A model generated the notes under the pieces. It ran no database searches and was not told where the DNA came from. It saw only the letters and a program-made list of their open reading frames with translations. From positions 1-33,187 of the forward strand of contig PHEC01000068.1 of the NCBI GenBank assembly GCA_002841115.1: 33,187 bases of DNA, given 5' to 3'. The position numbers and the translations under genes were made by a program. Shown piece after piece: positions 12,238 through 23,872 of the stretch; positions within the stretch are counted from its first letter, which is position 1; the number at the start of each line of letters is the position of its first letter. This DNA is from Alphaproteobacteria bacterium HGW-Alphaproteobacteria-6. Its GTDB lineage: Bacteria; Pseudomonadota; Alphaproteobacteria; Rhodobacterales; Rhodobacteraceae.

Positions 12238-13131
12238 TCATTCCCGCAACGCATAGTCGATGATCAGTGTTTTCTGAAACGCGCGAAAGTTATCGTCGGC
12301 GATCAGCGTGACCATCGGTTGACCATCGGGATCGGTCCACAGGCTGATCCCTTCCATGTTGTCCAACTCACCGGGCGCGGTCAGCAGCAGCGTCTCGGAC
12401 GCGCCAAACCTGCCGGCGGCGAAGGCAATGCGCCTGACCCGGGTGGCAAACCCGGACAGAAAGCTGTGGCGGCGCTCCAGTAGATAAAGCCGTCCGGCGC
12501 CGTCGAAGGTGGCATCGACCGCGGCGAAGCCGCCGGTGCCGGCCGGGACCGGCGGGCCGGGCCGCCACAGCATGTCGCCGTCCCCGGCGCCGGTCAGCGT
12601 CGCATAGCTGCCGTCCGGGCCGGCGACCTCGAGGATCGCCAGAAGGCCGCCCGTCGGGCTGAACGCCAGCGCCTCGATCGCCTCGTTGCCCCAGAGGTCG
12701 CGAAACCGGTCCCAGTCGCTGAGATGCTCCGGCATCGGGTCGGGCGGGCGAAAGCGGGCGATGCGCACATAGCCCTCGAAGCCAATGGTGATGCTGCCAT
12801 CGGGCGCCAGCGCCATCGCCTCGGCATCAGCGGTGAAGCCGCTGACCGGCTTGCCGTGATTGTCCTTCAGATGCAGTTGCGAGAGGGTCTCGATCGCGGT
12901 GATCCGTCCGTTGCCGTCGCGGGCCACGGCGGCCCGAAAAAGCACGCCGCGATCACTGAGCGCCCAGAGGCCGGCACCGGAACCGGTCACCGCCAGTGCC
13001 GAAAACCCGCCGAAATCGGTGCCCGGTCCGGTCCAGACATGGCGGCTACGCTCGATCAGTTCGGCGCCGGTCGCGGCGGCGCAAGACAGAAGCCATCCGA
13101 CCAGCGCCAGCCAGGCTGCCTGCCGCGCCAT
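12238..13131 (-). CDS. Secreted phytase-like / esterase-like domain protein (first paralog)
   Basis: A 297-residue protein with a signal peptide ('AAWLALVGWLLSCAAATGA', residues ~5-23) and a beta-propeller-like body of the phytase-like esterase family (PF13449 type). Features are 'FGGFSALAV', 'LWALSDRG', 'DAEAMALAPDGSITIGFEGY', 'NEAIEALAFSPTGG', 'LYLLERR', 'ELDNMEGISLWTD' and the C-terminal '[18 protein letters not shown]'. Family members are exported; their activity is mostly unproven. The start is the ATG at 13131, 10 bp from the GT2 stop, so it is probably co-transcribed with the glycosyltransferases; the longer frame overlaps GT2 and is out-of-frame noise. A role in trimming or modifying the EPS is conceivable but unsupported. 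A second copy lies at 19785-20657. Confidence 0.85.
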   Translation of the reverse strand: MARQAAWLALVGWLLSCAAATGAELIERSRHVWTGPGTDFGGFSALAVTGSGAGLWALSDRGVLFRAAVARDGNGRITAIETLSQLHLKDNHGKPVSGFTADAEAMALAPDGSITIGFEGYVRIARFRPPDPMPEHLSDWDRFRDLWGNEAIEALAFSPTGGLLAILEVAGPDGSYATLTGAGDGDMLWRPGPPVPAGTGGFAAVDATFDGAGRLYLLERRHSFLSGFATRVRRIAFAAGRFGASETLLLTAPGELDNMEGISLWTDPDGQPMVTLIADDNFRAFQKTLIIDYALRE

Positions 13132-13141
13132 GGGGCGGCGG

Positions 13142-14173
13142 TTATCGGCGCGGGCGGGCAAAGGCAATCCGCGCCGCTTCGGGCGACAGCCGCTCGCGCA
13201 CCGATCGCGGTGCCGGCAGGCCCCAGACCGCCCGCAGGATCGTCGTCGCCTGCGGCCAGGCCCCGGCCAGCGCCAGTTGCAGCGCCTTCGCGGTGGCATA
13301 AAGCATCGCCACCGGCAGCCCGGCCGGGTTGAAGCGGCGCATGAACAGCATCCGGCCGCGATACTTGAACCAGAAGGAAAACGGCGAGGCGAGCCGCTCG
13401 AGCGTCGGCGAGCCGATCGCGGTGCCGGCATGGTGAAAGACCACCAGGCCCGGCGCCACGACCAGCGGCAGATCGCCGCGACGAAGCGCCCAGTCGGCCT
13501 CTTCGTAGTAAAGGAAGTAATCCTCGCGCATCGGCCCGACGGCCTCGTAGAACCGCCGCGACGCGATCATGTTGGCGCCGGTGACGAAATCGATCCCGGC
13601 ACCGTCGGGCAGAGGCGCGGCATCGGCCTCGCGACCGAGATTGACATTGCCGGTCACCCCGGTCCAGCGGTTGATCCGCCCGCCGTCGATCTGCACCCGC
13701 TGCGGCGGTTCGGCATAGCGCACCCGCCCGCCCATCAGCCCATAGCCGGGCACCTGCGCCGCCATCGCCAGAATCGCCCGGCCCGCACCCGGATCGGCAT
13801 AGGCATCGGGGTTCAGCACCCAGAAATGCGCGATCGCGGGCAGGCCGGCCAGCGCCGCCAGGCCGATATTGACCCCGCCGGCAAAGCCGCGGTTCACCGC
13901 CGAACGGATCAGCACGACATCGGCCCCGGCCCGACCCAGCGGCGCCCCTTCGGCGACCTCGACCAGATCCACGCCCCCGGCCCGTGCCCAATCCCTCAGC
14001 ACGGTCACCGTGTCGTCGGCCGAGGCATTGTCGATGACCACGATACCCGGTGCCCCGCCGTCAAGCGCCATCAGGCTGTCGAGGCAGCCAAGGATGACAT
14101 CGGCGGAATTGAAGGCGACGATGACGGCGCCGATCGGGCTATCGGTTCGGAACTGGTGCATCTTTCGCGACAT
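13142..14173 (-). CDS. Family 2 glycosyltransferase (rhamnosyltransferase-like)
   Basis: This 343-residue GT-A enzyme has the opening 'GAVIVAFNSADVILGCLDSL', the nucleotide-binding 'IVVIDNASADDT', 'NRGFAGGVNIGLAAL', the metal-binding region 'FWVLNPDAYADPGAG' and the acceptor-side 'DYFLYYEEADWALR', with the acidic pair usual in WbbL-like inverting transferases. It should transfer one sugar to the growing lipid-linked unit at the inner membrane. Donor specificity cannot be read; WbbL-like enzymes often use dTDP-rhamnose, but no rml genes are in the window. ATG at 14173 ('MSRKMHQF') is chosen; an internal ATG four codons on is possible. Repeat copy 2 separates it from the flippase gene upstream. 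Confidence 0.9.
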   Translation of the reverse strand: MSRKMHQFRTDSPIGAVIVAFNSADVILGCLDSLMALDGGAPGIVVIDNASADDTVTVLRDWARAGGVDLVEVAEGAPLGRAGADVVLIRSAVNRGFAGGVNIGLAALAGLPAIAHFWVLNPDAYADPGAGRAILAMAAQVPGYGLMGGRVRYAEPPQRVQIDGGRINRWTGVTGNVNLGREADAAPLPDGAGIDFVTGANMIASRRFYEAVGPMREDYFLYYEEADWALRRGDLPLVVAPGLVVFHHAGTAIGSPTLERLASPFSFWFKYRGRMLFMRRFNPAGLPVAMLYATAKALQLALAGAWPQATTILRAVWGLPAPRSVRERLSPEAARIAFARPRR

Positions 14174-14387: not shown

Positions 14388-15791
14388 TCATGACAGTCGC
14401 CGCCAGAGATACCCGCGCAGCCCCCCCATCGCCGCAAGGGCGGCCAGAACACTCAGCCCGACGATCCAGTGCAGCGGGTGCAGATGCGCCGCCAGTCCGG
14501 GCTGCGGCGGATGAAGGCCGGCATCGATCACCACGACCACACAGGCCAGCGCCGACAGCACCGCGGGAAGCATCAGCGGAGCAAGTCGCATCCCGACCCG
14601 GCCGCGGGTCAGCCAGAGACCGGCCAGGAAGCCCATGACCTCGGCCGCCGTGGCGATCCAGATGATCGCCAGCATGTCGCCGGTGCGGATCGCCACCAGC
14701 CAGGACAGCGGCAGCGAGGCGATGCGGAACAGATTGGCAATGACGGCATTGCCCGATCGTTCCCGCGCCAGGGCGACGAGCGAGCCGCCGGTCTTGGCCA
14801 CGCGCACCGCCTGCAAGACAGCGATCGGCACCAGGATCGGCAGGATGCCGTCGAACTTGGCGCCCAGAAGCAGATGCACGACCGGACCGCCCAGAAGCGA
14901 GGCGCCGAGGATCAGCATGAGGCCGATCACCAGTCCCGCCTCGATCGCCGCGATGCCAAGCCGCTGGAAGGCCTCGGCCCGGTCGCGCAGTGCGCTCAGC
15001 TGCGGCAGGAAGAACGACTGGCACGAGCCTGCCAGAACCAGCGTCGGCGTCAATGTCAGCGTCATCGCCATCGAGAAGACCGCCAGTTGCGCCATCCCCA
15101 TCTCGCGCCCGACGATCAGCCGCTCGCCGTTGAAGACCCCGAAAAGAAGTGCTCCGTTCAACAGAAGCGGCCAGCCGAACACCGTCGCCCGCCGCATCAG
15201 CGCGAAATCCAGCCGCAAGCGGTAGCGCCGCTCGGCGGTCCAGTGCGACAGCACCACCATCGCCGCAGCCTGGATCATCAGCGCCACCAGCATGATCCGG
15301 TAATCGCCGTAAAGCACCGCCAGCGGCCAGACCGCCAGCACCGACACCAGCGCCGGCACCACATTGGCAATGACCGAGGGGGCAAAGCGCATGTGCCGCT
15401 TCAGCCGGTGCATGTCGAAATGCTGCAAGCCGTTGATCAGCGGGATCGCGGCAATCACCTGATAGGCCCAGGCGACCTGCTCGATGCCGAGGAACCGCGC
15501 ATAGGGATGGGCGATCGCAAAAAGGACCAGGCTGGAAAACAGCCCGCGCAGCACCTGAAAGCCCTGCATCGCCGCCTGGAAATCCGGCTCGTCACCGTCG
15601 CGGTCGACGACGATCATCTGGTTCAGCCCGAAATAGGACAGCATCTCGACCACCGACATGGCGATGGCGAAGGTCGCGGCGATGCCGTAGTCCTCGGGGC
15701 TGATCAGCCGCGCCACGATCAGGTTGCGCAAAAGCAGCAGGGCCGAGCCAAGCGCATTTCCCGAAACCAGCAGAATGGCTTTCTTCAGCAT
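14388..15791 (-). CDS. Oligosaccharide flippase (Wzx/MATE-like polysaccharide biosynthesis protein)
   Basis: A 467-residue integral membrane protein with roughly 12-14 hydrophobic helices. It opens with 'ILLVSGNALGSALLLLRNLI' and 'LISPEDYGIAATFAI', the pattern of the polysaccharide-biosynthesis/Wzx group of the MOP superfamily. Such proteins flip undecaprenyl-linked repeat units across the inner membrane before polymerisation. With the GT2 and GT4 enzymes it points to a Wzx/Wzy-type route, yet no Wzy polymerase or chain-length regulator is in view, so those probably lie beyond the left edge. The start is the ATG at 15791 ('MLKKAILL'), directly ahead of the first helix; a longer frame to 15851 adds 20 polar residues. 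It is the first gene of the minus-strand EPS unit. Confidence 0.88.
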   Translation of the reverse strand: MLKKAILLVSGNALGSALLLLRNLIVARLISPEDYGIAATFAIAMSVVEMLSYFGLNQMIVVDRDGDEPDFQAAMQGFQVLRGLFSSLVLFAIAHPYARFLGIEQVAWAYQVIAAIPLINGLQHFDMHRLKRHMRFAPSVIANVVPALVSVLAVWPLAVLYGDYRIMLVALMIQAAAMVVLSHWTAERRYRLRLDFALMRRATVFGWPLLLNGALLFGVFNGERLIVGREMGMAQLAVFSMAMTLTLTPTLVLAGSCQSFFLPQLSALRDRAEAFQRLGIAAIEAGLVIGLMLILGASLLGGPVVHLLLGAKFDGILPILVPIAVLQAVRVAKTGGSLVALARERSGNAVIANLFRIASLPLSWLVAIRTGDMLAIIWIATAAEVMGFLAGLWLTRGRVGMRLAPLMLPAVLSALACVVVVIDAGLHPPQPGLAAHLHPLHWIVGLSVLAALAAMGGLRGYLWRRLS

Positions 15792-16054
15792 GATCCCGGT
15801 TCTGTGCCTGCCGCCCGCATCCTGGGCCATGTCTTGCGTGCAAATGACCATCGTCGCAAGCCCCGCTCACCGCATAGCATGGCGGATCCGCCGGCCCGGG
15901 TGGGAAATACCTCGAACCTTTCCCGATTGCCGCTTCGGCGGATCATCGCCGACAAGGCGAACTTTCCGGTTCTGGCGCGCGCATTGTCCCCGATTTCGAA
16001 CCAGTGGTGATCTGGACGCGGATTGATCCGTGCGGCCGGGAATCGCCGGCGGCT

Positions 16055-17047
16055 TCACCCCGCCCCATGCCAGGGCGCGTCACCCTTCAGGACGGTCCGC
16101 GCCATCCAAACCGCACGGTCGGCAAAGGCGCGCTGGCGCGGGTCATCGGCGCCCGCCCGCGTCATGATCCACCCCGCCGAGGCGAAGGCGCGCAGCATCA
16201 CGAAAAGCGCCAGATCCCGTGCAGCCTCGGCCGGCAGCGACCGCACCGCCCGGTAGCCGGCCAGAAGTGCCGGCACGATCCGCGCCAGATGCGGCTCGTC
16301 GAGGCTCTGCACCAAAGCCGTCGCCAGATCGTAAAGCCGGTAGCCATGGCCGCAGTCGTCAAAGTCGATCAGCGCCAGCCCGGAACCGCCGCACAGCACA
16401 TTCTCACGGTAGACATCGGCATGGATCAGCCCGTAATCAGGGGCCGCGCGGCGGATCCGGCCAAGCCGGCCCCGCGCCAGCGCGGCGGCATCCTGCACAA
16501 GGTCGCTATCCTGCCGCGACAGCGCCGGGTTCTCCCAGAACCGCCCCCAGTGCGGTGCCTCTCCCAATAGCCCCGCCGCGTCCCAGTGCCGGCGCGCCAG
16601 CCCGGCCGCCCCGGCCCAGCCATCGGCCGCGTCATGAAGCCGCGCCAGAAGCCCGCCGATCGCGGCGAACAGCGCCTCCTGCTCTGCCACCCCGCCCGCC
16701 AGCGGCACCCCGGCCGCGCCGATCGCCCGGCCCCCGATCCAGGTGACGCAACTGGCAAGCCGCCCGCCGGCCTCGCCGATCAGCCCGCCATCCGCCATCG
16801 GCCAGGGCTGCGGCACCGGCAACCCGGCGCTCGCCAGCGCGCGCATGAAGTCAAGTTCGGCCAGGATCGCCCGGCGCCCCTGATAGCCCGGCCGATGCAG
16901 CCTGAGCGCCACCCGCACACCTTTCGCCAGCACCACCTCGAACACCGCATTCTCGCGGATCTGCACCAGCCGCGGCGGCATCATGGCCCCGCCCCAACCC
17001 GCCAGCGCGACCCGCGCCAGGGCCCCCGCCTCGGCCCGCCCGGTCAT
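16055..17047 (-). CDS. APH-family phosphotransferase (hydroxylysine/homoserine kinase-like)
   Basis: A 330-residue aminoglycoside-phosphotransferase-fold kinase. The catalytic loop is 'LIHADVYRENVL' (His209, Asp211, Asn216) and the metal-binding segment 'LIDFDDCGHGYRLYDLATAL' (Asp228, Asp230). The ATG at 17047 overlaps the original TGA of the aminotransferase (ATGA at 17044-17047), so the genes were translationally coupled. Family relatives phosphorylate hydroxyl groups of small amines or amino acids. In vertebrates hydroxylysine kinase works with a phospho-lyase of the same family as the neighbouring gene. Now the upstream frame runs straight into this one, so the protein may be made alone or as the C-terminal half of a 717-residue fusion. 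The substrate is inferred from the neighbour only. Confidence 0.85.
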   Translation of the reverse strand: MTGRAEAGALARVALAGWGGAMMPPRLVQIRENAVFEVVLAKGVRVALRLHRPGYQGRRAILAELDFMRALASAGLPVPQPWPMADGGLIGEAGGRLASCVTWIGGRAIGAAGVPLAGGVAEQEALFAAIGGLLARLHDAADGWAGAAGLARRHWDAAGLLGEAPHWGRFWENPALSRQDSDLVQDAAALARGRLGRIRRAAPDYGLIHADVYRENVLCGGSGLALIDFDDCGHGYRLYDLATALVQSLDEPHLARIVPALLAGYRAVRSLPAEAARDLALFVMLRAFASAGWIMTRAGADDPRQRAFADRAVWMARTVLKGDAPWHGAG

Positions 17048-18208
17048 GCCCCGATCCGGTCCAGCGCCTCGGCCAGAACGCTGGCGGCCAGATCGCCGTT
17101 CTCGCGCGAAAACGGCATCGGCGGGCGCAGCTTCCGCCGCATCCGGCGCCGGCCGGCCCTCGCGCATCAGTTCCACCGCAAGGAACAGCCCGCGCCCGGT
17201 GACCCGGGCGATCAGCGGATGATCCAGCGACCGCAGGAGGCCCAGCATATGCGCGCCACTGTCCAGGGCCCGCGCCATCAGACCCTCCTGCTCGATCACC
17301 TCCAGAACCGCCATCGCCGCGGCACAGGACACCGGATTGCCGCCGAAGGTGTTGAAATAGCCGAACGATCCGCGAAAGGCCGCCATCACCTCGGGCCGCG
17401 CCACCACCGCGGCGACCGGATGACCATCGCCCATCGGCTTGCCGAGGCTCACCACATCGGGCGCGAAACCCAGCCAGTCATGGCCCCACCAATGGCTGCC
17501 CAGCCGCCCGAACCCCGGCTGCACCTCGTCGCACAGGATCAGCCCGCCGGCCCGGCGCACCAGCGCGACCGTGGCATCGAGAAACCCCGGCGCCACCTCC
17601 GGCAACCCCTCGTTGGCAAAGACCGGACACAGCATCAGCCCGGCAAACCCGTGCCCCGCCGCCTCCAGCTCGGCAATCGCCCGCGCGACATGGGCGGCAA
17701 AGGCCGCGCCGTCCGGCCGGTCCGGCGCCGGCACCAGCCGGACATGACCGGGATAGCCGCCGATCGGCGGACGGCGGGTCGACAGCCGCGCCACCGCGGC
17801 GGTATTGCCGTGATAGGTGTTGTCGGTGGCGATGATCCCGGTCCGCCCGGTCGCCGCCTCGGCCATGCGCAACGCGATGTCATTGGCCTCCGACCCGGTG
17901 CAGACCATGATCACCTGGCGCAGCCCGTGGCCGAAGCGCGCCACCAGCCGCTCGGCATAATCGAGAATCCCGCGGTGCAGATAGCGGCTATGGGTGTTCA
18001 GGACCCCGGCCTGCGCCGCGATCGCCTCCACCACCTTCGGGTGGCAATGCCCGACATGGGCGACGTTGTTGTAGCAATCAAGATAACGCCGCCCCGCCGC
18101 ATCCCAAAGCCAGACCCCCTCGCCGCGCACGATCTCGACCGGCTCGCCGTAGAAGGTCGGCACCCCGGGCCCCAGCAGCCGCACCCGGCGCGCGATCAGG
18201 TCACTCAT
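17044..18208 (-). pseudogene. Class-III aminotransferase of phospho-lyase type, with internal deletion and frameshift near the 3' end
   Basis: The first ~358 residues are a well-conserved PLP enzyme: 'YNNVAHVGHCHPKV', 'NTHSRYLH', 'CTGSEANDIALRMAE', 'LCDEVQPGFGR', PLP lysine 257 in 'SLGKPMGDGHP', 'GYFNTFGGNPVSCAAAMAV' and 'VTGRGLFLAVELMREG'. This matches ethanolamine-phosphate / phosphohydroxylysine phospho-lyases. After 'PAPDAAE' (about 17130-17140) the frame is lost. The proper C-terminus ('KLRPPMPFSRENGDLAAS...LDRIGA' and TGA at 17044-17046) is intact but in another frame, and roughly 25 residues usually found between ('helix plus ...NVL') are missing. As it stands, translation from 18208 runs on in the kinase frame to 16055, giving 717 residues. 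The domain missing residues and its native C-terminus may well be inactive. The start overlaps arfB by 8 bp. Confidence 0.8.
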
Positions 18209-18620
18209 CCTCCACCGGCCCCCGCAGCGCCTTGATCACGCCACGCCCGGCCTTGGCCGCCAGCCGGCGCCGCTGGCTGCCCAGGGTGGGGCGCGTCGCC
18301 ACCCGGCGCTTCGGCGCCACCAGCGCCGCGCGCACCAGTTCGGCCAGCCGCTCGCGCGCCATCTCGCGGTTGCGCGCCTGGCTGCGGGTCTCCTCGGCAC
18401 GGATCACGATCGCCCCGTCCTGGGTCCAGCGCCGCCCCGCCAGCCGCTTCAGCCGCGCCTTGACCGCCTCGCCCAGATGCGGGCTGCGCGCCGCCTCGAA
18501 GCGCAATTCGACCGCGGTCTCGACCTTGTTGACATTCTGCCCGCCCGGTCCCTGCGACCGGCTGAAACTCTCGCTCAACTCCCAGTCGGCAAGCACGATG
18601 GTATCGCTGATCCGCAACAT
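18201..18620 (-). CDS. arfB: Alternative ribosome-rescue factor / peptidyl-tRNA hydrolase ArfB
   Basis: A 139-residue protein with the class I release-factor motif 'SRSQGPGGQNVNKVETAV' (GGQ at 26-28), 'RFEAARSPHL', 'EETRSQARNREMARERL' and a basic tail 'KRRVATRPTLGSQRRRLAAK'. That is the size and layout of E. coli ArfB/YaeJ (140 residues). It frees ribosomes stalled on mRNAs without a stop codon: the tail enters the empty mRNA channel and GGQ hydrolyses peptidyl-tRNA. It lacks the codon-recognition domain of RF1/RF2. Its end overlaps the aminotransferase start by 8 bp. The start is the ATG at 18620. Confidence 0.95.
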   Translation of the reverse strand: MLRISDTIVLADWELSESFSRSQGPGGQNVNKVETAVELRFEAARSPHLGEAVKARLKRLAGRRWTQDGAIVIRAEETRSQARNREMARERLAELVRAALVAPKRRVATRPTLGSQRRRLAAKAGRGVIKALRGPVEDE

Positions 18621-19784: not shown

Positions 19785-20657
19785 TCAATCCTCCACCCGG
19801 TATTCGACGATCTCGCTGCGCTGCAACGCCCGGAAATTGTCGTCGGCGATCATCGTCAGGCGAATCGCCCCGGCCGCGTCGCGCCAGACCGCGATCCCTT
19901 CAAGGTTGTCATGCCGCCCGGCGCGGGTCGCCAGCAGCACCTCGTCGGCCACCACCCGCTCGCCCGCCAGGGTGATGCGCCGCACCCGGCTCCTGAAGCC
20001 GATGAGGCCCCAGAAATCGCGCTCCAGCAGGTAAAGCCGCCCGTCGGGGCCAAAATCGGCACCGACCGGCCGCCAGACCCGGTCGCGGCCGAGATCGAAG
20101 GGCCGATCCCAGGCCCCGCCCCGATAGCGGTGGACCGCGATCACGCCGGCCCCCACCTCGGGAAAGGCCAGAAGTGCGCCATCCGGCGCCAGCGCCAGCG
20201 CCTCGATGCCGCCGTTCGGGGCAAGGTCGCGGAACGCGCGCGGCGCGACCAGGCCCCGGGCGGCAGCATCGCGCGACGGGTAGAAGGCGATCCGGTGCTC
20301 CAGTTCGAAGGACACGAAGAAGCCGCCGCCCGGCGCCCAGGTCAGCCCTTCGGCATCGTCGAGCGGGTCGCGCACCACCCGCCCGGCCGAATCGTGCAGC
20401 ATCACCGGCCGATCCGCCTCGATCGCGACGATCCGCCCGGCGCCGTCGCGCACCAGACGCCCGGCCAGGGTCGCCCCCGAATCCGACAGCGCCAGAAATC
20501 CGGCCCCGTCCGGCGTCACCTCAAGCCCGGAAAAGCCGCCGAAAATGGCGCCCTCGCCCTGCCAGTCGAACCGCCCGAGAAACTGCACCTCGCCCGCCGC
20601 CGCCGGCACCGCCAGCACCGCGGCGAGGGTCAGTCCGAGGCCAGGACCGCGGCGCAT
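19785..20657 (-). CDS. Secreted phytase-like / esterase-like domain protein (second paralog)
   Basis: A 290-residue exported protein: signal peptide '[17 protein letters not shown]' (residues ~5-21), then '[20 protein letters not shown]', '[20 protein letters not shown]', '[20 protein letters not shown]', '[10 protein letters not shown]', '[12 protein letters not shown]' and '[18 protein letters not shown]'. Every block has a counterpart in the gene at 12238-13131, so both belong to one phytase-like esterase family (PF13449 type). ATG at 20657 is chosen because the signal peptide follows; it overlaps the mepA end by 28 bp. It sits in a wall-metabolism and housekeeping series, not in the EPS unit, so the paralogs may have different substrates. 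Confidence 0.85.
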
Positions 20658-21523
20658 CGGGCAGGCAGGTCGGCCATGGTGTAGTCGCGCGGCCCCCTCG
20701 GGCGGGGCTGTGCCGGGCGGTCCTTTGGCGGGTTGCGCAACTCGTCCAGATAGGTCGTCACCCACCAGTTGAGCGTCTCGTCGCAGCCGTCCCCGCCCTT
20801 CGACAACTCGGCCACGGTCGGGGTCTGGGTCTGACAATGGCGCGACCCTCTGGGGCATTTCAGCCGGACATGGAAATGGGTGTTGTGGCCGTAAAGTGGG
20901 CGGATCTTCTGCAACCAGCGCTTGTCGGCGCGCCGCGCGCCCTGACACATCGCGACCTTGACCGCGGCGGCGACAAAGATCCGCTCGACCCGCGGATCGG
21001 ACGCCGCCGCCTGCATCAGCCGCTGATGCGCCGGGGTCCAGTTGCCGTTGATTCTGGTCTGGTCCTCGGTGCGGACCGAGACCGAACTGATCGCCTCGCG
21101 CTCGGCCCGGTTCAGGGTCAGGCGCCTCGGCGGCAGCATCCAGATATCGGCATCCAGCCCGATCTGGTGGCTGGCATGGCCGCTGGTCATCGGCCCGCCG
21201 CGCGGCTGGCTCATGTCGCCGACATAGATCCCGGCCCAGCCGAGCCTTTGCGCCGCCGCCCCGAGATCGGCGATGAAGGCGATCAGCTCCGGCTGGCCCC
21301 AGTTGCGGTTGCGCGAGAGCCGCATCGCCTGCCAGCCCGGCCCGGTCTCGGGCAGTTGCACCATCCCGGCACCGCAGCCTTTCGCATAGCTGCCGATCGC
21401 CTCGGGCGGCTGGGCCGAGGCCTGCCGCCTGGCCCCGAAGAGCTGGTTGGCCAGGGGCTCTGCCGCCACCGGGGCGGCCAGCGCCAGGCACAGCCCGAAA
21501 AGTCCGGTGATGCGAATGATCAT
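20630..21523 (-). CDS. mepA: Penicillin-insensitive murein endopeptidase
   Basis: This 297-residue periplasmic LAS-type metallopeptidase cuts D-Ala-meso-DAP (and DAP-DAP) cross-links in peptidoglycan. It has a signal peptide ('[16 protein letters not shown]'), '[15 protein letters not shown]', the metal motif '[14 protein letters not shown]' (His119 and Asp126 probable ligands) and '[12 protein letters not shown]' with the further histidine ligand. Cysteines conserved in the family are present ('KGCGAG', 'AMCQGA', 'LKCPRG'). The start is the ATG at 21523, overlapping the stop of the MFS gene by 4 bp (ATGA), so coupled translation is likely. The frame beyond it runs into MFS coding DNA in another frame. 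Confidence 0.95.
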
Positions 21524-22887
21524 CCTTCCCGCTCTCCTTCCGCCCTGACCCGGATCATCAGCACCAGCCCGATGCCGAAAAGCACGATCAGGGGTGATAC
21601 CCCCCAGCGCTGGTTGCCGGTCAGCGCCGTCACCAGCGCGATCATCGCCGGCGCCAGAAAGGCGGTGGCCTTGCCCGACAGCGCGTAAAGCCCGAAGGCC
21701 TCGGTCGCGCGATCGGGCGAGGTATGGCGCACCATCATCGTCCGGCTCGATGCCTGAAGCGAGCCACCGGCGCCGCCGATCAGCGCACCGCAGAGATAGA
21801 AGATCCGGTCGGGCAGCGCCGAGCCTTCGGCAAAGCCGATGCCCCAGAGGCCGCCACGGGTCAGCCCGACGATGATCACGCAAACCGCGATCAGCACCAG
21901 GATCGAGACGACGATCACCGGCTTCGGCCCATAGGCCCGGTCGGCCCGCCCGCCGATCCAGCTTGCCACCATCGCCGCCACCGCGCCGATGATGCCGAAG
22001 ACGCCGATCTGCAGGATGCTCCAGCCCAGCACCCCGCCGGCATAGATGCCGCCAAAGCCGAACAGCCCGTTCAACGCGTCGCGGTATAGCATCGCCGAGC
22101 CGAGGTAGGCGGCAAGGCTTGGCCGGTGCAGCAGGCTGCGCAAAAGCCGCCTCAGATCACCCAGCGCCGCGCCGATATCAAGCCGCCGTCGCGCGACCTT
22201 CGGCTCGCGCACCCACAAAAAGAACGGCACCATGAAGACCGCATACCAGATCGCACTGAAGGGGCCGACCGCCCGCGTCCCCTCGCGCAACACCGGGTCA
22301 AGCCCGAAAAGCGGCGCGATCCCGATCAGCGTCCGCCCGCCCGCCCCGCTTTCGGCCAAGAGCGTCAGCATCAGGACCAGCGCCACCACCCCGCCAAGAT
22401 AGCCGAAGGCAAAGCCCGACCCCGATATGCCGCCGATCTCGTCATGGTTGCCGAGCGCGGGCAGCAGCGCATTGGTGAAGATCGTCGCGAATTCCATGCC
22501 GATCAGGCCGAGCCCGAAGAAGGCAACCGGCCAGAACAGCCCGCCCGCCTCCGGCAGCAGGAACCACAGCCCCCAGGCGCCGGCGACATAGCAGGCCGAG
22601 AAGAACCAGATCCAGACCATGCGCCGCCCGCTCTGGTCGGCGATCGCGCCGAGGATCGGGGCGAGGACGGCGATGAGGACGCCGGCGATGGTCAGCCCGG
22701 TGCCCCAATAGGCCTGCGCCGCCGCCCCGGCGGCCTCGGCGCCCATGCCGAGTGCTGCAAAATGCGCCCGCGCGACCTCGCCGAAATAGGGGGCGAAGAT
22801 GAAGGTCAGCAGCAGGGTGTTGTAAGGCTGGCTGGCCCAGTCGAAGAAATACCAGCCCCAGATCCGCTTGCGCGCCGATACCGCCAT
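21520..22887 (-). CDS. MFS transporter, UMF1 / Atg22-like family
   Basis: A 455-residue protein with about 12 transmembrane helices. It starts with '[20 protein letters not shown]', a hallmark of the UMF1 group of the major facilitator superfamily (related to yeast vacuolar amino-acid exporter Atg22). '[19 protein letters not shown]' is the helix 2-3 loop motif and '[20 protein letters not shown]' the later conserved segment. Substrates of bacterial UMF1 proteins are unknown; amino-acid efflux is a guess from Atg22. It is coupled to mepA by an ATGA overlap and begins 64 bp after truB. A link to recovery of wall fragments is possible from that coupling only. Confidence 0.9.
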
Positions 22888-22951
22888 GCCCCGCCTTTCG
22901 CCTTTCGGGCGATCAAGCCCGAAAAGCCACCCGCGTGCAAGACATGGCCGC

Positions 22952-23872
22952 TCAGCGTGCCGCCGGCGCGGGCAGGTTGAAGACCCGGGCCGGGTGCAAT
23001 TCCCCGGCGCGGTAGATGCCGACCGCCACCGCCCGGCCCTTGTCGCTGGCCCAGGCCGGTTCGCCGTATTCGACGCCTTCGGCGATCACCATGCCGGGGT
23101 TGCCGTTGCGCAGCCGTGCCGCGCCCTCGGGTGTCGCGCGGACCTCGGGCAGATCGGCCAGCCCGACCTCCAGCGGCAGCAGCAGTGCGTCGATCTCGGG
23201 GCTGCGCGCCAGTTCCTCGATCCGCGCCAGACTGACGCCATCCTTCGCCTCGAACGGCCCCGACCATTCGCGGCGCAGGACCGTGACATGGGCCAGACAG
23301 CCCAGTGCCCGGCCAAGGTCGCGGGCGATGGCGCGGACATAGCCGCCCTTGCCGCAGACCATCTCCAGTTCGGCGTGATCGGCGTCGGGCCGGCCGGTCA
23401 GATCAAGGCTCTCGACCCAGAGCGGGCGCGCGGCGAGATCCATCACCTCGCCCTCGCGGGCCAGGGCATAGGCGCGCTCGCCCTCGACCTTGACCGCCGA
23501 GAACTGCGGCGGCACCTGCATGATCTGGCCGCTGAGGGCCGGCAGCGCGGCGCGGATCGCATCGTCCGAGGGGCGCAGGTCCGAGGTGGCGATGACCGTG
23601 CCCTCGGCGTCGTCGGTATCGGTCGCGGCGCCGAAGCGGATGGTGAAGCGGTAGCATTTCAGCGCGTCGGTGATATAGGGCACGGTCTTGGTCGCCTCGC
23701 CCAGCGCCACCGCCAGAACCCCGGTCGCCTGCGGATCAAGCGTGCCGGCATGGCCGGCCTTCTTCGCATCGAAGGCCCAGCGCAGCTTGTTCACCACCGC
23801 GGTCGAGGTGATGCCCGCCGGCTTGTCGACCACCACCCAGCCCGACAGGTCGCGGCCCTTCTTGCGTGCCAT
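22952..23872 (-). CDS. truB: tRNA pseudouridine-55 synthase
   Basis: This 306-residue enzyme makes pseudouridine 55 in the T-loop of tRNAs. Signatures are '[17 protein letters not shown]', the catalytic Asp46 in '[14 protein letters not shown]', '[20 protein letters not shown]', '[21 protein letters not shown]' and '[16 protein letters not shown]', with a C-terminal PUA-like region ending '[16 protein letters not shown]'. Length is normal. In many bacteria truB follows rbfA directly; here a 768 bp glycosidase-domain gene lies between them. Start: ATG at 23872 ('[12 protein letters not shown]'). Confidence 0.97.

What the first reader, a model, noticed from the sequence alone, without database searches (positions are those of the whole stretch)
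16055..18208. Deletion that fuses a phospho-lyase to a kinase across an ATGA overlap
The sequence shows a class-III aminotransferase and an APH kinase that once overlapped as ATGA (17044-17047). Near 17130-17140 a stretch of about 75-85 bp, not a multiple of three, appears lost: the true C-terminal coding sequence still stands in another frame down to its own TGA. The shift opens the upstream frame into the kinase, giving one 717-residue ORF. Kinase plus phospho-lyase is the pair used for hydroxylysine or phosphoethanolamine-type substrates, so a bifunctional fusion would be of real interest; loss of the end of the aminotransferase fold instead suggests decay.
Basis: partly seen in the sequence, partly recalled or inferred. 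Interest (0 to 1): 0.7.

Follow-up and report, generated by a model that had tools for sequence, protein, structure and literature searches.

The report
Phospho-lyase gene broken by small deletion
In this draft bacterial genome a deletion of about 71 bases has cut off the end of a phospho-lyase gene and, by shifting the reading frame, joined it to the neighbouring kinase gene; the most likely outcome is one broken enzyme beside a still intact kinase, not a new two-function enzyme.

Summary
ORF 16055-18208(-), 717 aa, is a class-III aminotransferase-fold protein (phospho-lyase-like) run into an APH-fold kinase. Relatives size the loss at 71 nt (33 of 93) or 74-80 nt (57 of 93), at about 17133/17134. 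The true C-terminus, KLRPPMPFSREN...RIGA, survives in another frame down to the TGA that overlaps the kinase ATG. None of 93 distinct adjacent pairs is fused, nor are the 11 other listed kinase frames of 650 aa or more from a 394-genome search. The kinase frame is open past KxRPP in 56 of 93 unfused relatives, so the open fusion frame is an ordinary by-product. The ORF lacks about 53 C-terminal residues; the kinase keeps its motifs. The same genome holds a paralogous pair with both frames complete. In 18 of 21 congeners arfB sits directly beside the flippase, without the pair. Best reading: a recent frameshifting deletion inactivated a dispensable phospho-lyase and turned translational coupling into covalent run-on. 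A draft-assembly error cannot be excluded without reads. A working bifunctional enzyme is unlikely. Interest is low.

The parts
16055..18208 (-). 717-aa run-on ORF: truncated class-III phospho-lyase + 29 out-of-frame residues + APH-fold kinase
17135..18208 (-). Phospho-lyase body still in its own frame (residues 1-358); GSEA (105), DEVQPG (227) and GKP (256-258, holding the presumed PLP lysine) present
   Evidence: catalytic meaning of the motifs is recalled
17133..17134 (-). Deletion junction; about 71 nt missing against relatives (range 62-80)
17044..17133 (-). Orphaned native C-terminus (KLRPPMPFSREN...RIGA, stop TGA at 17046-17044), no longer in the frame of the phospho-lyase body
16055..17047 (-). 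APH-fold kinase, 330 aa, own ATG at 17047-17045; HADVYREN and IDFD motifs present
18201..18620 (-). arfB (alternative ribosome rescue hydrolase), whose end overlaps the phospho-lyase start; within 900 nt upstream on the same strand in 72 of 85 orthologs
14388..15851 (-). Flippase-like gene downstream; directly beside arfB in 18 of 21 congeners

Best explanation
An ordinary arfB / phospho-lyase / kinase gene row, in which kinase translation was probably coupled to the phospho-lyase by an ATGA overlap, suffered one deletion of about 71 bp near the 3' end of the phospho-lyase gene. Shown (for this assembly): about 24 codons are missing against relatives, the remaining C-terminal codons are out of frame, and the shift puts the upstream frame in register with the kinase, so the predicted product is a 717-aa run-on. 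Inferred: the phospho-lyase half is inactive because it lacks the last helices and strands of its C-terminal domain; the kinase may still fold, as a fusion or from its own ATG; the loss is tolerated because a paralogous pair with complete frames exists elsewhere in the genome and the locus seems dispensable in this genus; the deletion is recent, because the rest of both genes looks largely conserved.
For: 0 of 93 distinct adjacent pairs are fused; the kinase lies in relative frame 2 in 76 of 93, and 62 of 93 have ATGA at the lyase stop. Missing length 71-80 nt in 90 of 93. The kinase frame is open back past KxRPP in 56 of 93 unfused relatives and past the missing segment in 47 of 93, so an open run-on needs no selection. 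Of 137 near-invariant phospho-lyase columns (residues 5-350) the window departs at 4 (85 orthologs: mean 1.3, range 0-7); of 38 near-invariant kinase columns at 1 (83 orthologs: mean 0.4, range 0-4). Paralogous pair at G000:C6:94705-96842: lyase frame of 425 aa with KxRPP, kinase frame of 331 aa without stop. In 18 of 21 congeners arfB and the flippase lie about 16-217 nt apart, against 2350 in the window; the 1.5 kb downstream of arfB holds no lyase or kinase match in 21 of 21. AlphaFold2 predicts the intact relative L030 well to its C-terminus (ten-residue blocks from 361: 85-97), while the run-on's residues 364-445 fall under pLDDT 50 and so does nearly all of 18-53.
Against: 4 departures in the phospho-lyase body is towards the high end (9 of 85 orthologs have 4 or more), one of them beside the presumed PLP lysine (GNG to GDG), so decay or drift may have begun before the deletion. 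The kinase shows no clear decay, which would be odd if the whole pair were useless. The run-on model is poor overall (mean pLDDT 68.4, pTM 0.49) and the low stretches include the kinase's first residues (388-445) and 464-502, so it does not isolate the effect of the truncation. No reads were seen.
Confidence: 0.83

Rival explanations
1. Assembly or consensus artefact: the bases are present in the organism and were lost in the draft assembly.
For: The genome is a draft of 288 contigs, 87% complete, perhaps a metagenome bin; no reads are available; the rest of both genes looks largely conserved.
Against: 71 bp is not a typical base-calling error (general knowledge). In the 33 relatives of the 71-nt class the longest word shared within 30 nt of both breakpoints is 4-10 nt, which I judge too short for a repeat collapse. 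The local single-strand fold is not unusual (z -0.30). All of this is indirect.
Confidence: 0.12
2. A functional bifunctional (or scaffolded) phospho-lyase-kinase fusion that passes the phosphorylated intermediate between domains.
For: Both domains are in one frame without a stop; kinase and aminotransferase do occur in one chain in nature, in the opposite order; catalytic motifs of both halves are present.
Against: The ORF lacks about 53 C-terminal residues that hold 9 invariant columns among 14 relatives; it is found in 0 of 93 relatives; the 29 residues before the kinase are the shifted reading of the native C-terminal codons; residues 364-445 are predicted with pLDDT under 50 (a poor model).
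Confidence: 0.04
3. The deletion removed the lyase but the kinase is kept for a separate role, made alone from its own ATG. (Not exclusive of the best explanation; its odds overlap with it.)
For: The kinase keeps its motifs, has a GGGG-containing stretch just before its ATG and departs at only 1 of 38 near-invariant columns.
Against: No expression data; a kinase without its lyase would be expected to build up a phosphorylated intermediate unless the C6 paralog acts on it (inference).
Confidence: 0.25

Closest known systems
Phospholyase of PDB 5g4i/5g4j (from Arthrobacter aurescens, recalled) and ethanolamine-phosphate phospho-lyase of PDB 6tor (human, recalled)
   Same: Closest solved relatives of the intact ortholog L030 (354.6 and 285 bits); same class-III fold family
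   Different: The window copy leaves register before the C-terminal LKxRPP segment and lacks about the last 53 residues
Kinase-aminotransferase fusions PRK06148/PRK06149 and the two-domain APH-aminotransferase proteins of two congeners (L120, L122) and one more distant genome (L020)
   Same: The same two enzyme families in one chain; NF004799 and NF004800 are the best NCBIfam matches of the window ORF, through its aminotransferase part
   Different: There the kinase is N-terminal and the aminotransferase complete (in L003 with a peptidase M23 domain between); here the order is reversed and the aminotransferase truncated; scores (394.4, 329.6) lie far below the curated cut-offs (1128, 973)
Hydroxylysine kinase and phospho-lyases acting on 5-phosphohydroxylysine and phosphoethanolamine (Veiga-da-Cunha et al. 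2012; seen only as a reference entry in PMC8154272)
   Same: Kinase plus PLP phospho-lyase logic
   Different: Substrate of the Rhodobacteraceae pair is not known from any call

Membership tests
Class-III PLP phospho-lyase | Sequence closer to solved phospho-lyases than to other class-III enzymes | tested here: met
   Met by the intact ortholog L030, used in place of the window gene: 5g4i 354.6 and 6tor 285 bits against GABA aminotransferase 157.6; the window copy itself was not put to this test
Class-III PLP phospho-lyase | Complete C-terminal domain with the LKxRPP segment | tested here: not met
   KLRPP is in another frame; of 96 distinct sequences only the window's lacks KxRPP in frame
Class-III PLP phospho-lyase | Beta-elimination of phosphate | not testable with these tools
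   needs an enzyme assay
APH-fold kinase | APH profile and HxDxxxxN / D-F motifs | tested here: met
   PF01636 3e-26; HADVYREN and IDFD (meaning of the motifs recalled); solved relatives 6ef6, 2ppq
Kinase-aminotransferase fusion (PRK06148/06149) | Score above curated cut-off; kinase N-terminal, complete aminotransferase | tested here: not met
   394.4 vs 1128 and 329.6 vs 973 bits; order reversed and truncated

The most novel reading that the evidence does not exclude
A single deletion of about 71 bp turned a translationally coupled enzyme pair into a covalently linked one in a single step, and the run-on protein is made: the kinase works while the PLP-fold half, lacking its C-terminal domain, serves as an inert or regulatory appendage. 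This would be a natural snapshot of how an ATGA overlap gives birth to a gene fusion.
Probability: 0.08. Interest if true: 0.4.

Novelty: new member of a known kind. Interest (0 to 1): 0.17.

Why it matters
It is a clean, sized example of how a small deletion near an ATGA overlap gives an apparent bifunctional enzyme that automated annotation could call a fusion. With the arfB-flippase site lacking the pair in most congeners and a paralogous pair elsewhere in the genome, it fits a gene pair caught in the course of loss. Beyond that it is ordinary genome decay.

Tried and rejected
Conserved fusion: rejected; 0 of 93. One search (394 family genomes, kinase query, E up to 1e-35, 149 genomes with a match) listed, besides the window, 11 kinase frames of 650 aa or more; these suggested real fusions, so they were fetched together with 7 shorter ones (18 regions). 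In 14 of the 18, all 11 long ones included, a related phospho-lyase (53-76% identity) lies upstream in another frame, with its own stop and KxRPP; none is fused. In 3 no lyase match was found, and in 1 the only match was a 31% one in another position. One search did not list all its matches, so unlisted ones were not checked. Some of the 14 appear to be sequences already counted.

Repeat-mediated deletion: no support; microhomology at the breakpoints in the 33 relatives of the 71-nt class is 0-2 nt in 32 and 5 nt in 1. The window reads GAAGC at the junction, but the ancestral bases are unknown. Hairpin: z -0.30.

Foreign contig: not supported; the best listed matches of the region 20630-23872 (truB and neighbours) are congeners, and the arfB/flippase neighbourhood is shared. 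The arfB tree (91 rows) is poorly resolved: the window pairs with one congener (90/95), but its highest plain identity is to a non-congener (81%, L033), and the congener label needs 8 changes, so the tree does not decide vertical descent against gain.

Literature: eight searches listed no paper on this pair or on a lyase-first fusion; one search found nothing and one search returned mostly unrelated papers; only open-licence PMC papers are held. One paper was seen, in passages only (PMC8154272).

Full report
What is there. ORF 16055-18208(-) is 717 aa. Pfam matches are Aminotran_3 (residues 24-360) and APH (419-656). The window is contig C43 of a draft genome of 3.77 Mb in 288 contigs, 87% complete; the named relatives are nearly all Rhodobacteraceae/Paracoccaceae.

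The deletion. On the minus strand the phospho-lyase frame runs VELMREGRPAPDAA and then leaves register; from 17133 another frame reads KLRPPMPFSRENGDLAASVLAEALDRIGA and stops at the TGA that overlaps the kinase ATG. Residues 1-358 are native, 359-387 are out of frame, and the kinase begins at M388. I used the 80 named loci that one search kept (of 333 stretches that encode a relative) and the loci of the best matches from whole-genome searches. With phospho-lyase identity of 57% or more there were 111 rows, 96 distinct; of these one is the window, two have no kinase match in the held DNA, and 93 have a same-strand kinase within 120 nt. The distance from the conserved GLF to the K of KxRPP gives a loss of 71 nt in 33 of 93, 74 in 36, 77 in 14, 80 in 7 and 62-65 in 3. 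The near relatives L030, L034, L046 and L125 are in the 71-nt class.

Is the fusion more than chance? None of the 93 pairs is fused; the kinase sits in relative frame 2 in 76, frame 1 in 16 and frame 0 in 1 (with a stop between); 62 have ATGA and 8 TGATG at the lyase stop. In 56 of 93 unfused relatives the kinase frame is open back past KxRPP, and in 47 past the whole missing segment. So a deletion of this remainder would give an open run-on about half the time with no selection. In a search of 394 family genomes (149 with a kinase match at E up to 1e-35; not all matches listed) the 11 other listed kinase frames of 650 aa or more all proved to be out-of-frame openness: the lyase has its own frame and stop.

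What the lyase lost. In intact relative L030 (417 aa) the lost part corresponds to about residues 365-417, with 9 invariant columns of a 14-sequence alignment (E369, L377, G382, L388, K389, R391, P392, P393, F396) and most of a helix, two strands and the last helix (361-373, 379-381, 387-390, 398-413). Its model has block pLDDT 85-97 there. In the model of the 717-aa ORF, residues 364-445 are below 50, and so is nearly all of 18-53, whose counterpart is mostly 76-89 in the intact protein. Against reading much into this: the two models used different, shallow alignments (27 and 14 rows), the run-on model is poor overall (mean 68.4, pTM 0.49), and its low stretches include the start of the kinase and 464-502, away from the junction. 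Identity as phospho-lyase rests on the intact ortholog: 5g4i 354.6 bits, 6tor 285, next 157.6.

State of the rest. Near-invariant columns (97% or more in the orthologs): lyase 4 departures of 137 (85 orthologs: mean 1.3, range 0-7, 9 of 85 with 4 or more); kinase 1 of 38 (83 orthologs: mean 0.4, range 0-4). Kinase motifs HADVYREN and IDFD are present. This points to a recent event or to continued use of the kinase, though the lyase body is on the high side.

Setting. arfB lies within 900 nt upstream on the same strand in 72 of 85 orthologs of 64% or more; in 3 of the 13 others the held DNA begins within 600 nt of the lyase, so its absence there is untested. Of the 21 congeners searched none has a match above 65%. 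Their arfB is present in 21 of 21, the 1.5 kb downstream of it shows no lyase or kinase match in 21 of 21, and in 18 of 21 the flippase starts about 16-217 nt after arfB, against 2350 nt in the window; in 3 no flippase was found. Since the arfB-lyase-kinase order is widespread in the family, loss in congeners is the simpler reading, but gain in this species is not excluded (the arfB tree, does not decide). The same genome has a second adjacent pair at C6:94705-96842: lyase 60% identical, 425 aa, with KxRPP; kinase 42% identical in an open frame of 331 aa. One search counted one TGA inside a longer alignment of that kinase region (query from 356); the kinase-only match has none, so I take it for the stop ahead of the kinase.

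How it works now. Before: ribosomes ending the lyase at TGA could restart at the overlapping ATG. Now those reading the lyase frame pass into the kinase frame and make a 717-aa chain; a separate kinase would need its own initiation at 17047 (a GGGG stretch precedes the ATG). The frames are shown; translation, folding and activity are inferred.

Verdict. A real feature of the assembly, correctly seen; most likely recent inactivation of a dispensable phospho-lyase, with an artefact of the draft as the main rival. Low interest.

Noticed in passing
window 16055-18620; orthologs among L009-L142: arfB, phospho-lyase and kinase stand in one row in much of the family (arfB upstream in 72 of 85 orthologs), overlapping in the window; why a ribosome-rescue gene goes with this pair is unexplained.
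   Followed up: partly
L120:1324-3642(-), L122:1348-3666(-), L020:391-2745(+), L003:10-2784(+): Natural fusions in the opposite order: APH kinase N-terminal and aminotransferase C-terminal, in L003 (own genome, held DNA begins inside the frame) with a peptidase M23 domain between.
   Followed up: partly
L188-L198: In 11 relatives the kinase frame stays open, out of frame, far into or through the lyase gene (frames of 653-972 aa), a trap for fusion calls by ORF length alone.
   Followed up: yes
window 12238-13431(-) and 19785-21491(-): Two ORFs on either side of this region share similar C-terminal halves (GRLYLLER...RVRRI...DNxEGI...[10 protein letters not shown]); seen by eye, family not named.
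   Followed up: no
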